DNA of 64,000 nucleotides from Botryosphaeria dothidea (Eukaryota > Ascomycota > Dothideomycetes > Botryosphaeriales > Botryosphaeriaceae), in contig WWBZ02000082.1 in NCBI GenBank assembly GCA_011503125.2, positions 1,488,001-1,552,000 of the forward strand, written 5' to 3'. The position numbers were made by a program, and so were the translations under genes. This document shows, piece by piece, positions 28,434 to 34,360 of this stretch. Position 1 is the stretch's first letter. The number at the start of each line of letters is the position of its first letter. The notes beneath the pieces are model-generated. The model had not been told where the DNA came from. It worked only from the letters and a program-made list of their open reading frames with translations, and did no database searches.

Positions 28434-30131
28434 ATGGCTAACCTCACCAGGAGCCCCTTTCTCGTATTGCTGCTCTCGTTCCTGCTGGGCACGTTAGCAT
28501 TCGACGACCCTCTCGTCGAGCTGGACTACGGATCCTTCCAAGGCCGCTACAATGCCGAATACAACATCTCCTACTTCCGCAAGATCCCCTTCGGCGCCTC
28601 CACCGCCGGCGAGAACCGCTTCCGCGCGCCGCAGCCGCCCCTGCCCATCACCAATGGCACGTACAACACTGACCAGCCCTTCGACATGTGCCCGCAGCGC
28701 ACCGTCAACGGCTCCGAAGACTGCCTCTACCTGGGCCTGTACTCGCGCCCGTGGACCAACTCCTCCGCCCTCCGCCCCGTCCTCGTCGTCTTCTACGGCG
28801 GCGGCTTCATCCAAGGCTCCGCCTCCTTCTCCATCCCGCCGCCCATGTACCCGGTGCTGAACGTCAGCACCGCTAACGACATCGTCATCGTCTACCCCAA
28901 CTACCGCACCAACGCCTTCGGCTTCCTCCCCGGCAAAGCGGTCGCCGACTCGCCCACCGCCGACCTCAACGCCGGCCTGCTCGACCAGGACGCCGCGCTG
29001 CGCTGGGTGCACGCCAACATCGCACATTTCGGCGGCGACCCGAGCCGTGTCGCCATCCAGGGCCAGTCCGCGGGCGGCGGGTCGGTCGTCGCGCAGGCGA
29101 TCGCGCGCGGGGGCGAGACCGAGCCCAAGCTCTTCCGCGCCGCGCTGCCGGGGTCGCCGTTCTGGCCGAAGACGTACGCGTTCGACGCGCCCGAGGCGGA
29201 GGCGCTGTACGCCGGGCTGGTCGAGAGGGTCGGGTGTGGCGGGGAGGGCGACGCGCTGGCGTGCCTGAAGCGTGCGGACGTGCAGGCGGTGCGGAACGCC
29301 AGCCTGGCCATCAGCGGGCTGCGGCAGTACACGACGTCGTCGTTCAACTGGGGCCCGGTGGTCGATGGCGAGTTTTTGCGGACGCCGCTGTCGGAGGCGA
29401 CGAGGCTGAACGCCGAGGTCGCGTGGTCCATGTTCAACACGCACGAGGGCGAGAACTTCGTGCCGGGCGGCCTGGGGCAGGCGAATGGCTCCAACGGGTT
29501 CAACAGCTCCGACGGGTTCAACAGCTCCGAGGCCGGGTTTGAGGGCTGGGTGCGCGGGTACGTGCCCGGCTTCTCGGACGCGCAGGTGGAGCGGCTGAAG
29601 GCGTTGTATCCGGCGGCGGGCGAGGCCGAGGAGGCGGCTTGGAACACGACGACCGTGCGGGCCGGCATGGTGTTTCGCGATTCGGTGCTGGCGTGTCCGG
29701 GGCTGTGGTTTGCGGAGGCGGCGGGGAAGGGCATGGGGTATTTGGGCGAGTACACGATCAGCCCAGCCAAGCATGGCAGCGACACGCAGTTTGTAAGTGG
29801 TCCCTCTTTTTCATTCAATCCTTTAGTGGTGGTTGGATTTCGTTGTGGTGGTGCTGACTGGTACGTTTTCTAGTGGAATCAAGTGAACGCGGTCCAGAAA
29901 TCGCAGCCTTTGGTTTACCAAGGGTTGGCAGGAGCAATGGCCAGCTACTTCCAGACTGGGGGGGAACCAAATGCGCACAAGCTGACTGACAGCTCGCAGG
30001 CGGGAGTGCCAGAGCTTACGGCCGGGAAGGAGTGGGTCGTGAAGTCAAATTCCTTTGAGCAAACAGACATTACCATGTTGAAGGCGCGGTGTGCATTCTG
30101 GAAGGGAAATGCAAGGGACATACCATTATAA
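28434..30131 (+). CDS. Secreted type-B carboxylesterase
   Basis: An alpha/beta-hydrolase of the carboxylesterase/lipase type B family, 538 residues, in two exons (28434-29792 and 29874-30131; intron 81 nt, phase 0). Residues 1-22 are a signal peptide (FLVLLLSFLLGTLAF). The oxyanion loop is FYGGGF, the nucleophile elbow GQSAGG (Ser212), the acid in NTHEGENF (Glu338) and the His in SPAKHGSDTQF (His447). Many N-x-S/T sites are present, including a small in-frame tandem repeat GFNSSDGFNSSE near residues 358-369. The stop codon TAA is unusual: its first two bases are the TA target duplication of the pogo element and its last base is the first base of the transposon. The reading frame is intact. 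Substrate unknown. Confidence 0.93.
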
Positions 30132-30180
30132 CGTAGTTTACAAGCGAGCCGCCACTCCAAGCGAGCCGCCACCCTCACCA
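30131..30180. repeat. Pogo element left terminal inverted repeat
   Basis: 50 bp, identical to the inverse of 31937-31986. It contains an internal direct duplication of a 14-bp motif (CAAGCGAGCCGCCA), a possible double transposase-binding site. Confidence 0.97.
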
Positions 30181-30402
30181 GCTTTCTACGCCTTCACACG
30201 CATATCGTTCAACAACGCATTAAAATATAATGAGAACAACAACTATCCTAGCTTAAAAAGCCTCCACAGTATCTTTTTGACACGTACGAGAATTGTGCCC
30301 TGGCTCCCTACAGCGCCTACAGCGCGCTATTTGCTGCCTACTCACACCAGATCGCGCCTTGCCTCGACGCATTTCGCCCTCAAGTTGCTCATTAACGTCC
30401 TT

Positions 30403-31905
30403 TTAAGCAGTAATTTCCTCACCCTCTGCCTTTGTTAAGGTACCTCGCTTCTGGATCCGCTTTCTTTTGCGCTGTTTACGCTTCGTGGCAGCCTTATTTG
30501 CCTTCTGAAGGCTAGAGACCTGATCGCGTAACAAGACCATCTCATGCACCATCAGCTGAGCCCCCTTGGTAAGCCGATTAAGCGACTCAATCATTGAAGT
30601 AGGCGACGAATCTTGGTGCCTTTGAATCCGATCGCGAATTAGGGTTGATTGGGACTCTAGTTCTCGCGCGTTGCTTGGTGTTTTCGACTCCCATAGAGCA
30701 GCCTCTGGGGCAGCTGGTGGTGTTGGCGTACGAAGCTTCACATCAAGCTTTGATAGCACCGCATCTAGGTCGTACGGCACTAGCCCAGCTCCTCGAAAGC
30801 TTGCGCAGATGTTAGCCTTTATAATTGACTTATCAAAGGCTACTTTAAAGGCTGGTAGGAACTCAAGCTTGGTGATATGGTTGATGTGGTTGCGCGCCAA
30901 GCCTCCAATCTGATCCCCATACGCGCGCTTCAACGGCGAGAAGCAGCCCACATCAAGCGGCTGGAGCAGGTGCGACGAATGTGGAGGCATACAGAGGGTA
31001 ATAATCTTCTCCTCCTTGCAGATCGCCTGGAACTCAAGCGAGTTGTGGCTCTCGTGGCCGTCGATAATCAGCAGCCGATACGTCCCCACCGTACGCGCTT
31101 TCGTATGCTTGTTGAAGTGTTTTAGCCACGCAACCCCAAGCTCATTCGTTGTCCAGCCGTTGTCACTAACTGCGATGGCCCAATCGCCAGGTATATCGTT
31201 GTCCCCATACCAGGCGGAGAGGTGGTGCTTGGCCGCGAAGATGATGAATGGTGGAATCGCCCACCCAGCAGCGTTGATTCCTTGGATGATAGTCACCCAC
31301 TCACGGTCGCCTGGCTGTACCGCCTTTGGTCGATTACGCCTCTCCGAGCCTGTAACAACGAGCTGAGCCAATATCTTGCCCATCATAAAGCCAGTCTCGT
31401 CGAAGTTGTGGGTATCTTCGTCAAGGATGCCGTACTTCTCCTTCGTACGCTGTACAAGCTTAAACCACTCGCCAAGGACCTTAGGATCCTCACACAAGGC
31501 CCGCTGGCGATCATACGGTCGATTCAATTGAGTTTTAAGCTGCGGAGTCCGCCCAACAAAGTTCCTTGGCCAATGCGTGCCAACCTGGCCAGCAGCGCGC
31601 TCAGCAAGCAGTTTATTAGCCATATCCCGCACTGCATCCAACGTAGGCGCAAAGCCTCGCGAGTCTAGGTCATATATGTGTTGAATTATTGCCTCCTCCT
31701 CGGGTTTTGTAAGCTTCTTTGAATTGGGCTCGTAATCGCGTCGTGAGGCGACTCCGGCGCGTCGGTCGCGGAGCGTGGTTCGGGGGATGTTAAACGTTGA
31801 CGCAGCGCGCTTTACGCTCCGGATCTGCTTCTTATCGATAGCTGAGATAGCGAGGAAGATATCTGCTTCGTTATAGGTTGATCGAGTAGTAGTTGGTTGA
31901 GCCAT
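30403..31905 (-). CDS. Pogo/Fot1-type transposase (DD35D)
   Basis: Cuts and pastes the surrounding element. 500 residues, no intron, ATG at 31905. The N-terminal half carries psq-like and CENP-B-type helix-turn-helix DNA-binding domains (about residues 10-130, with AASTFNIPRTTLRDR and GTHWPRNFVGRTP). The DDE_1 catalytic core shows Asp169 (NFDETGF), Asp282 (IIDGHESH) and Asp318 (LLQPLDVG); the last two are separated by 35 residues, the DD35D spacing of the pogo/Fot1 group. A Lys/Arg-rich tail (KRKQRKRKRIQKR) may be a nuclear signal. No stop, frameshift or missing catalytic residue is seen, so it could be active. Confidence 0.97.
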   Translation of the reverse strand: MAQPTTTRSTYNEADIFLAISAIDKKQIRSVKRAASTFNIPRTTLRDRRAGVASRRDYEPNSKKLTKPEEEAIIQHIYDLDSRGFAPTLDAVRDMANKLLAERAAGQVGTHWPRNFVGRTPQLKTQLNRPYDRQRALCEDPKVLGEWFKLVQRTKEKYGILDEDTHNFDETGFMMGKILAQLVVTGSERRNRPKAVQPGDREWVTIIQGINAAGWAIPPFIIFAAKHHLSAWYGDNDIPGDWAIAVSDNGWTTNELGVAWLKHFNKHTKARTVGTYRLLIIDGHESHNSLEFQAICKEEKIITLCMPPHSSHLLQPLDVGCFSPLKRAYGDQIGGLARNHINHITKLEFLPAFKVAFDKSIIKANICASFRGAGLVPYDLDAVLSKLDVKLRTPTPPAAPEAALWESKTPSNARELESQSTLIRDRIQRHQDSSPTSMIESLNRLTKGAQLMVHEMVLLRDQVSSLQKANKAATKRKQRKRKRIQKRGTLTKAEGEEITA

Positions 31906-31936
31906 TGTAGTCGAAAGGTGACGCGTCGCGTGAAGT

Positions 31937-31986
31937 TGGTGAGGGTGGCGGCTCGCTTGGAGTGGCGGCTCGCTTGTAAACTACGT
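31937..31986. repeat. Pogo element right terminal inverted repeat
   Basis: 50 bp, exact inverse of 30131-30180, followed by the duplicated TA at 31987-31988. Confidence 0.97.
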
Positions 31987-32161
31987 TAGATAAAATTATC
32001 CGATGTATTATGTTTGAAGCCAATTGATCAACTCTGCATGTCAGATATCTCCATTGAGTCGTGAAGTGACCCGGACATGAAAAAAGATTAACGTGTTCAT
32101 ACAGGGTATCATAATTATGTAAAATGGTGCATAGCAATTCTCTTATGGTGCGCCGCCAGTC

Positions 32162-34360
32162 TCAAGCACCTTCCATCTTCACATCCTGGTCTTTCGGTTG
32201 CTCTTCTTGAGCAGGGGCATCGGATTGCCCCGGTTCCACTTCTTTTTTCTTTCCCAAGAACCTCTCTGGGACACCCTTAGCAACTGCGAACCTACCCTCA
32301 GACTTAGGTCCCACGAAGCAGCCCAACAGGTTGCTCCATCTCGCCGTTCCCATTCCTCCTCCGAGCCCACTGACAAACCTGCGGATACTTCTGAACGCAA
32401 AGGCATCTGCATACGGCAATCCCGTGAGAGGATCGCGGTAGCGTGCGGGCTGCGCAGTGATGCAACAAAGTTCGCGATGAGGCAAATGAGCATTGCGGGC
32501 GCCACGGCCAGGCGGTGGGCGTGTGGGAAGGGCAATAGGCATACCGGCCGGCCATCTAAAAAGAGCTCGCGAAAGTGCATCTTTGTCGCGAGGACGAAGT
32601 GAATCGAAATTTTGAAGGGTGATTAGGTTCCGCACTGCACGCAAAATAACCCTCCGAGGCGGTGCTGCCGGAGGGTCGGATTGCGCCTGTTGATACGAGG
32701 CGGGCTCGCCGGAGGCCTTGATAGGCTCGTCTCCTTGGTTCCTTTCTTTTGCTGACTCAGTGACCATTAAGGCCGAAGGTAACTGTGATTGTGAAGAAAG
32801 GGGTCGCTGAGCAGAGGAAGAATTCGGCTGATTGGAGTCCATGGATGCCCAGTCGAAAATCCCATCAAGGAAACCACCAGCTGACTGTGGCGGAGCAAAC
32901 ATGATGTTATTGCCTTGACCAGATGATAACTCGGCGGATGAGTTAACGGTATTGGATGGCTGGGTTTCAGACGAGCCTGTTTGAGAAAGGTGGGGTTTTG
33001 AAGACTGGGTCTGCGTTGGTTGGATGGTAGACAATTGCGATGGAGCTTGCTCTGATTGAGATTGTGGCGTTTCTGACGGATTCGGTTGCGAGGGCTCCAA
33101 TTCAGATGACTGCGGGTGGTCCGGCTGTGCCGTAGACGTTGGTTGATGGACCGGCAAGCTTTGAGTTTGCTCTGTGCTTGCAGCGGGCGCCTCCGCATTA
33201 GAAACCTGGTCAGAATTGTTTGAAGGTTCTTCGGGTTTGACAATTGCCGCAAGCTGCTGCTGAGGCGCACTATTCTCTTGCTGTCCGTCTTGGCCAACAG
33301 ATGCAGTGGATTGTGGAGCAACGATCGGTTCAGAAGCAATGGACGTGTTGGGAGCAGACGCAGTGGACTGCAGAGCAACGATCGGCTTAGACTCAGTGGA
33401 TGTGTTGACGGCATCATTGACGGAAGGGGAGTCGTCATCAAGCTCCTCGATCTTGCAGTTATCCTTACCCACTTGCTTAAGCTTATCATTGACCCAGAGA
33501 GAGGGACCGCTGTAGTAACGCACGAAAGGCCCGTCCAATTTGCGGTTTTTCAGAGCCTCCAGACGAGCCTTATTCTCCTCAGCCTTTTGCCTCTCTGACT
33601 CCTCCCACCGACTCAGCGTCTTGTTATTTCTTTTCTCGACGCGAGCCGCCTCGGCCAGCCGTTCCTGTTGTGTCATCGGCTTCGGCTGATCTTTCTCCTT
33701 TCGCTTCTCTGCCTTCTTCATTATCTCAAGAACGTGTAGGCGATGGCGTTCCTTCTCTTCCAGGCCCTGTGTGAGATTCTGCTTGTTCTGAACCGTGAGG
33801 CGTCTCGACGAGGATCGAACAGGCCCCTCGGTGGCCTCGGGTAGCCAGGACACGCGTTCGGACTTCTTTTTTGGGCGAGGAGGCGGTAGCATTGAGGATT
33901 GTGGAGTCGACTGCGCCGTAGTTTTTGCCTTCTTTTGTTGCCGCAGCGCGGCTTGCGCGAAGGGGTCTCGTCGCTTGCGCTTCTGTAGGAGCTTCTGCTG
34001 GCGCTCCTCTTTGCGGAGAACCTTCTCGCCGGCGTCTTCGTCGTCTTGCTCGCCTTCATCCTCATCTTCATCGCCTGAAGACTCCAGTGCGATGTCCTCG
34101 GGAGCAAGGGCGTCGGCGCCTCCGAATTCGTCGTCATCGGCATCTTCAGCCCAATGCTCGTTGTCGTAGAACTCGTGCGCGTCCTGCTGCTCGTCTGGGC
34201 GCTCCTCCTGGTCTAGCAGCTTTCGCATCCAATTGCCGGCATTGGAGCGGCGGGCGCGGGCAACCACCATGGCGGGCTCGGCATCGGAGGAGCTACTGGG
34301 CGCGTCGTTGGCGGCTTCAGGCAACGGGCGCCGCGTGCTGGGGTCGCCGTCCTGAGACAT
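32162..34360 (-). CDS. SWC2: SWR1-complex subunit Swc2/Vps72 (YL1 family)
   Basis: Histone H2A.Z-H2B-binding subunit of the SWR1 chromatin remodeller, which exchanges H2A for H2A.Z in the nucleus. Single exon, 732 residues. The N-terminal YL1 domain shows RRSNAGNWMRKLLDQE, an acidic stretch with DEDEDEGEQDDEDAGE, and the basic KRKRRDPFAQAALRQQKKAK block. A Gln/Ser/Pro-rich linker occupies about residues 330-560. The C-terminal YL1_C domain has HRELCCITAQPARYRDPLTGLPYADAFAF, split here as CCITAQPARYRDPLTGLPY followed by ADAFAFRSIRR. An acidic tail ends the protein. It is longer than yeast Swc2 mainly through the linker. It lies tail to tail with the transposon-interrupted esterase and head to head with the PUF gene. 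Confidence 0.95.
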   Translation of the reverse strand: MSQDGDPSTRRPLPEAANDAPSSSSDAEPAMVVARARRSNAGNWMRKLLDQEERPDEQQDAHEFYDNEHWAEDADDDEFGGADALAPEDIALESSGDEDEDEGEQDDEDAGEKVLRKEERQQKLLQKRKRRDPFAQAALRQQKKAKTTAQSTPQSSMLPPPRPKKKSERVSWLPEATEGPVRSSSRRLTVQNKQNLTQGLEEKERHRLHVLEIMKKAEKRKEKDQPKPMTQQERLAEAARVEKRNNKTLSRWEESERQKAEENKARLEALKNRKLDGPFVRYYSGPSLWVNDKLKQVGKDNCKIEELDDDSPSVNDAVNTSTESKPIVALQSTASAPNTSIASEPIVAPQSTASVGQDGQQENSAPQQQLAAIVKPEEPSNNSDQVSNAEAPAASTEQTQSLPVHQPTSTAQPDHPQSSELEPSQPNPSETPQSQSEQAPSQLSTIQPTQTQSSKPHLSQTGSSETQPSNTVNSSAELSSGQGNNIMFAPPQSAGGFLDGIFDWASMDSNQPNSSSAQRPLSSQSQLPSALMVTESAKERNQGDEPIKASGEPASYQQAQSDPPAAPPRRVILRAVRNLITLQNFDSLRPRDKDALSRALFRWPAGMPIALPTRPPPGRGARNAHLPHRELCCITAQPARYRDPLTGLPYADAFAFRSIRRFVSGLGGGMGTARWSNLLGCFVGPKSEGRFAVAKGVPERFLGKKKEVEPGQSDAPAQEEQPKDQDVKMEGA

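What the first reader, a model, noticed from the sequence alone, without database searches (positions are those of the whole stretch)
30125..31995. Transposon inserted exactly in a stop codon, which it rebuilds
The esterase stop codon is T30129 A30130 A30131: TA is the target duplication and the last A is the first base of the pogo element. Removing the element and one TA joins ...CCATTATA to GATAAAATT, where the same codon reads TAG. The insertion therefore changed TAG to TAA, kept the protein unchanged, and replaced the native 3' UTR with transposon sequence. Because element ends beginning with A restore TAA after any TA-x stop, this is a neat route to harmless genic insertion.
Basis: seen in the sequence. 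Interest (0 to 1): 0.75.

Follow-up and report, generated by a model that had tools for sequence, protein, structure and literature searches.

The report
Transposon landed in esterase stop codon
In a fungus, an ordinary jumping gene landed exactly in the stop signal of an enzyme gene and, because its own first letter is A, left a working stop signal behind: a tidy accident rather than a new mechanism.

Summary
A 1,856-bp transposon (30131-31986) with perfect 50-bp inverted repeats and a TA duplication sits in the stop codon of a carboxylesterase gene. Joined flanks read CCA TTA TAG; with the element the codon reads TA|A. The stop position is ancestral: 30 of 34 aligned homologues end in the same column, none goes further, and 4 lack the end in their gene models. 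The element is an ACGT-ended, DAHLIAE1-like Fot1/pogo transposon, a known kind. The "route to harmless insertion" does not hold in general: a copy differing at 10 bases turned a tyrosine codon of a RidA-like gene into TAA, and of 29 TA sites in the esterase coding sequence 20 are tyrosine codons and one is the stop. By a rough estimate one random TA insertion hits a TAA/TAG stop with probability 0.4-0.7%; at least one hit among 20 family sites has a chance of 8-13%. No empty allele was found: both esterase copies in the assembly carry the element. Replacement of the 3' UTR is likely but untested.

The parts
28434..29792 (+). carboxylesterase exon 1
   Evidence: ORF 28434-29873: Pfam COesterase 2.9e-62; splice site GTAAGT at 29793; homologues
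29793..29873 (+). esterase intron (GTAAGT...CTAG)
   Evidence: joined exons align with homologues through the junction
29874..30131 (+). esterase exon 2 with stop codon TAA at 30129-30131; the last A belongs to the transposon
   Evidence: 30 of 34 homologues end at the same column
30129..30130 (.). left copy of the TA target duplication = first two bases of the stop codon
30131..31986 (-). transposon, 1,856 bp, ACGT-ended, DAHLIAE1-like Fot1/pogo type (strand = that of its transposase)
30131..30180 (+). left terminal inverted repeat, 50 bp, perfect match to the right one; holds a 17-bp direct repeat (15 of 17 alike, read by eye)
31937..31986 (-). right terminal inverted repeat
30403..31905 (-). 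transposase frame, 500 aa; D169, D282 and D318 read as a DD35D triad
   Evidence: DDE_1 3.6e-32, HTH_psq 2.9e-05, HTH_Tnp_Tc5 below its cut-off; triad by motif position; shorter than 540-552 aa, the length of 106 of 120 listed relatives
30219..30234 (+). A-rich block with ATTAAA, 88-103 nt after the stop: candidate poly(A) signal inside the element (suggestive only)
31987..31988 (.). right copy of the TA target duplication
31989..31989 (+). G, third base of the inferred earlier stop codon TAG, now 1,858 bp away
32162..34360 (-). convergent neighbour: YL1 gene; 172 bp lay between the two stop codons before the insertion
   Evidence: Pfam YL1 4.1e-59 and YL1_C 1.3e-12; distance

Best explanation
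A cut-and-paste transposon of the ACGT-ended, DAHLIAE1-like Fot1/pogo kind inserted once, by ordinary TA targeting, into the TA of the stop codon of a carboxylesterase gene. TA was duplicated and the element begins with A, so translation still stops at the same residue, now at TAA instead of TAG. The insertion left the reading frames of both genes of a tightly packed convergent pair (esterase and YL1) intact, and so could survive. Shown here: the structure, the TA duplication, the intact frame, the conserved protein end, the domains of the element. Inferred: that the earlier codon was TAG, that selection tolerated the event for this reason, and that the esterase mRNA now ends inside the element.
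For: Perfect 50-bp inverted repeats and TA on both sides; 10 of 10 end-to-end places, 7 distinct sites, with the same ends and TA; DDE_1 and HTH_psq, DD35D spacing; 30 of 34 homologues end at the same column, none beyond; rough chance estimate 0.4-0.7% per insertion and 8-13% for at least one hit over 20 sites, so no special mechanism is needed.
Against: No empty allele and no RNA data could be examined. The estimate rests on an assumed share of TAA/TAG stops and on a gene density taken from a published B. dothidea assembly. 8-13% is low enough that a mild preference for gene ends cannot be excluded.
Confidence: 0.9

Rival explanations
1. Targeting: elements of this group prefer gene 3' ends, so the position is not an accident of TA targeting.
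For: In Sclerotinia sclerotiorum similar elements lie about 50, 135 and 300 bp after stop codons and one 87 bp after a stop is part of the gene's ESTs (PMC4188875 section 6).
Against: Of 20 distinct paired sites in this assembly only one is shown to be at a stop codon; one is a tyrosine codon in exon 1 of a RidA-like gene, one probably an intron of a DUF6594 gene, and several have AT-rich flanks. Most sites were not tested for genes, so this is weak.
Confidence: 0.08
2. Adaptation: ends that begin with A were selected because they make genic insertions harmless.
For: ACGT ends are conserved in 13 of 14 Sclerotinia families as reported (all but TcMar-Pogo; PMC4188875, passages) and in DAHLIAE1 and 2 (PMC3441728, passages).
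Against: The same A makes nonsense at tyrosine codons: 20 of 29 TA sites in the esterase coding sequence against 1 stop, and a sister copy did this. In phase 1 this element stops the frame after one further codon.
Confidence: 0.03
3. The earlier codon was not TAG, or the gene once ran on past this point, and later mutations make it look like a stop-codon insertion.
For: Only the flanks of the occupied site were seen; a later change of G31989 cannot be excluded.
Against: 30 of 34 homologues end at the same column and none runs on; the nearest, from B. dothidea, ends in the same six residues.
Confidence: 0.03
4. Assembly artefact.
For: The stretch is redundant in the assembly: it matches contig C36 at 100%.
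Against: The junctions have the hallmarks of transposition and are identical in both contigs.
Confidence: 0.01

Closest known systems
DAHLIAE1 of Verticillium dahliae (PMC3441728, passages seen)
   Same: About 1.86 kb, inverted repeats of 41-62 bp beginning ACGT with 15-17 bp internal direct repeats, 2-bp duplication, DDE_1 with HTH_psq and/or HTH_Tnp_Tc5.
   Different: Transposase of 551 aa there, 500 aa in this copy. Sequence identity was not measured.
ACGT-ended Tc1/mariner families of Sclerotinia sclerotiorum (PMC4188875; abstract, passages, sections 6, 7 and the first part of section 9)
   Same: 1.8-2.3 kb, ACGT ends, TA duplication, same domains; some copies close behind stop codons, one in the ESTs of its host gene.
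   Different: The distances printed there are 50-300 bp after the stop; here the element begins inside the stop codon.
Fot1 clade of the pogo family (PMC7325037, passages)
   Same: DD35D transposase, mainly fungal hosts.
   Different: No tree was made here. That Fot1's own ends also begin with A is recalled, from no call.
Plasmid pM3362MDR, integration at the TA of a stop codon (PMC6206304, passages)
   Same: Foreign DNA joined at a TA dinucleotide in a stop codon.
   Different: Bacterial plasmid recombination by a single cross-over in a truncated gene; no transposon.

Membership tests
Fot1/pogo transposons (Tc1/mariner superfamily) | TA target duplication | tested here: met
   10 of 10 end-to-end places, 7 distinct sites, found by similarity alone. 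The 23 pairs are no independent test, since the pattern held the TA.
Fot1/pogo transposons (Tc1/mariner superfamily) | Terminal inverted repeats around one transposase gene | tested here: met
   50 bp perfect; one transposase frame
Fot1/pogo transposons (Tc1/mariner superfamily) | DDE_1 catalytic domain with N-terminal HTH DNA-binding domain(s) | tested here: met
   DDE_1 111.8 bits and HTH_psq 24.1 bits, above cut-off; HTH_Tnp_Tc5 20.6 bits, below its cut-off of 22.2
Fot1/pogo transposons (Tc1/mariner superfamily) | DD35D spacing | tested here: met
   D282 and D318, 35 residues between, by motif position, not by alignment to a solved member
Fot1/pogo transposons (Tc1/mariner superfamily) | Place in a phylogenetic tree | not tested
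   no tree made
DAHLIAE1-like elements | About 1.86 kb with ACGT ends | tested here: met
   1,856 bp; 10 of 10 end-to-end places begin ACGT
DAHLIAE1-like elements | Direct repeats of 15-17 bp inside the inverted repeat | tested here: met
   17-bp unit twice, 15 of 17 alike by eye; best self-match of the end is at offset 17, 20 of 33
DAHLIAE1-like elements | Transposase of about 551 aa | tested here: inconclusive
   500 aa in this copy; it ends where the C29 copy reads on, at a difference of RIP type; 106 of 120 listed relatives have 540-552 aa. A trait of this copy, perhaps not of the group.
DAHLIAE1-like elements | Sequence similarity to DAHLIAE1 itself | not tested
   Verticillium sequences were not fetched; hence 'DAHLIAE1-like'

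The most novel reading that the evidence does not exclude
The element has taken over the 3' end of the esterase gene: it supplies the last base of the stop codon, the 3' UTR and the poly(A) signal, and the esterase transcript, antisense to the transposase, helps to keep it silent. It would then be a domesticated terminator between two convergent genes.
Probability: 0.15. Interest if true: 0.5.

Novelty: new member of a known kind. Interest (0 to 1): 0.3.

Why it matters
It is a clean matched pair from one genome. Two copies of one element that differ at 10 bases follow the same rule (TA plus A makes TAA): one is silent for the protein because it hit a stop codon, the other is a nonsense mutation because it hit a tyrosine codon. 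It shows that an insertion within a coding sequence can leave the protein unchanged, which screens for such insertions can misjudge, and it gives a simple prediction for the codon-phase spectrum of ACGT-ended fungal transposons. It opens no new class of mechanism.

Tried and rejected
Empty allele: I looked for a copy of the esterase without the element in the window's own assembly. Of five matches two cover the whole query and both carry the element; the other three are short pieces of 66-70% coverage or less at 69-77% identity, other esterase-like sequences. The collections of DNA on hand are viral, prokaryotic, phage, plasmid and E. coli (metagenome scans: none allowed), and the assembly has no relatives held, so the empty site in other isolates stays untested.

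An apparent inversion of the element between C36 and C69 (L011, L012) was dropped: those loci are given on the contig strand, and their flanks are reverse complements of each other.

Open frames of 109 aa at C2:1489754 and 32 aa at C6:186247 also end in a stop codon that holds the target TA (which printed the two longest frames per site). I did not count them: they are mechanical frames not tested for domains, and at C2:1489754 a frame on the other strand ends at the same TA too.

Domain tests of the flanks: the 36-aa exon piece of the RidA-like gene gave no Pfam match; exon 2 alone and the joined gene did. Of seven flank ORFs at five sites, four matched a family at E 0.01 or better, one of them (adh_short_C2) below its cut-off; the three without a match include two of the three that span a joined site.

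Poly(A) signals: of 14 listed hexamers five occur in one cluster inside the element, 88-103 nt after the stop, and none in the 400 nt scanned from 31990 on. The scan began one base too late to see GATAAA at 31989-31994, which is on the list. Fungal signals are loose; this is only suggestive.

Solved structures: the esterase has relatives such as EstA (1ukc, 3.5e-37); this added nothing to the question.

Prior reports of a transposon in a stop codon that it rebuilds: searches (25 of 198 listed; 20 of 1,609; 1 of 1; 12 of 29; 6 of 6; none) showed no such case in their listings. Of the six papers I opened three (passages); only PMC6206304 is related. This library lacks most subscription journals. 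One search (15 of 794 listed) showed no paper on pogo elements in Botryosphaeria.

Full report
What is there. The window lies in an assembly of 51.7 Mb in 78 contigs. It is fungal: the best protein match of the esterase is from Botryosphaeria dothidea, followed by other Botryosphaeriaceae (family recalled); no tool names the species of the window. At 28434-30131 lies a carboxylesterase gene with one intron (COesterase 2.9e-62 for the ORF that holds exon 1; 538 aa). At 30131-31986 lies a DNA transposon of 1,856 bp with perfect 50-bp inverted repeats and TA on both sides. Its transposase frame (500 aa, minus strand, 30403-31905) has DDE_1 and HTH_psq domains, an HTH_Tnp_Tc5 match just below its cut-off, and aspartates spaced as DD35D. 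On the far side, convergent with the esterase, lies a YL1 gene. Before the insertion 172 bp lay between the two stop codons.

The observation. The esterase stop is T30129 A30130 A30131; TA is the duplicated target and the last A is the first base of the element. Joined flanks read CCA TTA TAG in frame. I aligned 34 of the 120 listed homologues with the esterase. In 30 of 34 the last residue lies in the same column, none goes beyond, and the other 4 (P0007, P0009, P0020, P0023) are gene models that seem to read into the intron and lack the last exon. P0014, one of the 30, has a gap just before its last residue; P0001 and P0008 lack part of the region before the end. So the position of the stop is ancestral and the protein is unchanged in length.

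One event. The element with its flanks occurs on C78 (the window) and on C36, identical over the 4,856 bases compared. Other parts of the window also match C36 at 100%, and matches from C78:1.49 Mb to 3.13 Mb keep an offset of 885,566 to 885,678. This is one insertion in a stretch that is duplicated or assembled twice. The assembly holds no empty allele.

The family. A similarity search found 10 end-to-end places, 7 distinct sites; all have TA on both sides and begin ACGT. A pattern search for the ends (a capped list; the control pattern gave 26 and 23 matches against 57 and 59) let me pair ends by hand at 23 places, 20 distinct sites. That pattern holds the TA, so it is no independent test of the duplication. 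Two of the 20 pairs are longer than the rest (7.3 and 2.4 kb). The features resemble DAHLIAE1 of Verticillium dahliae: 1.86 kb, ACGT ends, internal direct repeats, the same domains (PMC3441728, passages), and the ACGT-ended families of Sclerotinia (PMC4188875). Sequence identity to those was not measured. The transposase frame is shorter than most relatives: 106 of the 120 listed proteins, the query's own record among the 120, have 540-552 aa.

Age and decay. The copy on C29 differs from the window copy at 10 of 1,856 bases. All 10 are transitions that put TpA in one copy where the other has CpA or TpG: 8 in the C29 copy, 2 in the window copy. That is the mark of repeat-induced point mutation (RIP; from general knowledge), though the direction of each change is inferred. 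One of the two in the window copy lies in the codon that ends the 500-aa frame. The C29 copy has a stop inside its transposase. Both copies are recent and show decay; whether either can move is unknown.

The rule cuts both ways. The C29 copy sits in the first exon of a gene with the Ribonuc_L-PSP (RidA) domain (exon 2 alone 5.9e-14, joined gene 2.2e-21; a 36-aa piece of exon 1 alone gave no match). There the target is the TA of a TAC tyrosine codon, codon 22 from the nearest in-frame ATG, and the element's A makes TAA: a nonsense mutation. In the esterase coding sequence 29 TA sites exist; 21 are in phase 0, of which 20 are tyrosine codons and 1 is the stop. In phase 1 this element stops the frame after one further codon. 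So an element that begins with A is no device for harmless insertion; in this coding sequence one TA of 29 leaves the protein unchanged. TGA stops hold no TA.

How surprising it is. With 304 genes per Mb as printed for B. dothidea (PMC7325678, passages), 1,874 TA sites in the 62,142 bases of the window outside the element and 40-70% of stops being TAA or TAG (assumed), a random TA insertion hits such a stop with probability 0.004-0.007. At least one hit over 20 sites then has a chance of 8-13%, over 100 TA insertions 33-51%. Selection against other exonic hits raises the share among survivors. Of the other 19 sites one is the RidA-like exon; one lies probably in an intron of a DUF6594 gene (domain in the frame to the right; the intron is inferred); one lies in or beside a DUF6536-like gene (domain in the neighbouring frame only). 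For the rest no gene at the site was shown, but only 6 of the 19 sites were tested for domains at all.

The 3' end. From 88 to 103 nt after the stop the element carries an A-rich block with ATTAAA (30219-30234). The esterase transcript probably ends inside the element or runs through 1.86 kb of it, antisense to the transposase. This is inference. In Sclerotinia element sequence is found in the 3' region of ESTs of a dehydrogenase gene, the element lying 87 bp from its stop codon (PMC4188875 section 6), so such a fusion has a precedent.

Verdict. It is a new and tidy instance of a known kind of event.

Noticed in passing
L003 (G000 C29:3284988-3286843): A copy that differs from the window's at 10 bases interrupts exon 1 of a RidA-like (Ribonuc_L-PSP) gene at a tyrosine codon and makes it TAA.
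   Followed up: yes
window 1001-62200 and contig C36: All pieces of the window searched outside the element match contig C36 at 100% at a nearly constant offset; with matches up to C78:3.13 Mb, much of C78 seems redundant with C36, either a large duplication or a stretch assembled twice.
   Followed up: partly
window 30131-31986 against L003: All 10 differences between the two copies are CpA/TpG to TpA transitions, the signature of RIP; one lies in the codon that ends the window's 500-aa transposase frame.
   Followed up: partly
L070 and L071 (G000 C1:5796359-5798224): A relative of the element seems to sit in an intron of a DUF6594 gene, just before a branch-point-like CTAAT (intron inferred).
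   Followed up: partly
L006 and L007, flanks: Flanks of two copies are AT-rich with extreme RIP indices (TpA/ApT 2.07 and 2.10; (CpA+TpG)/(ApC+GpT) 0.04 and 0.02), unlike the window (0.62; 1.26).
   Followed up: no
window 28434-29792, near residue 360 of the esterase: The window esterase has six extra residues, a repeat of GFNSS, that the B. dothidea protein P0001 lacks.
   Followed up: no
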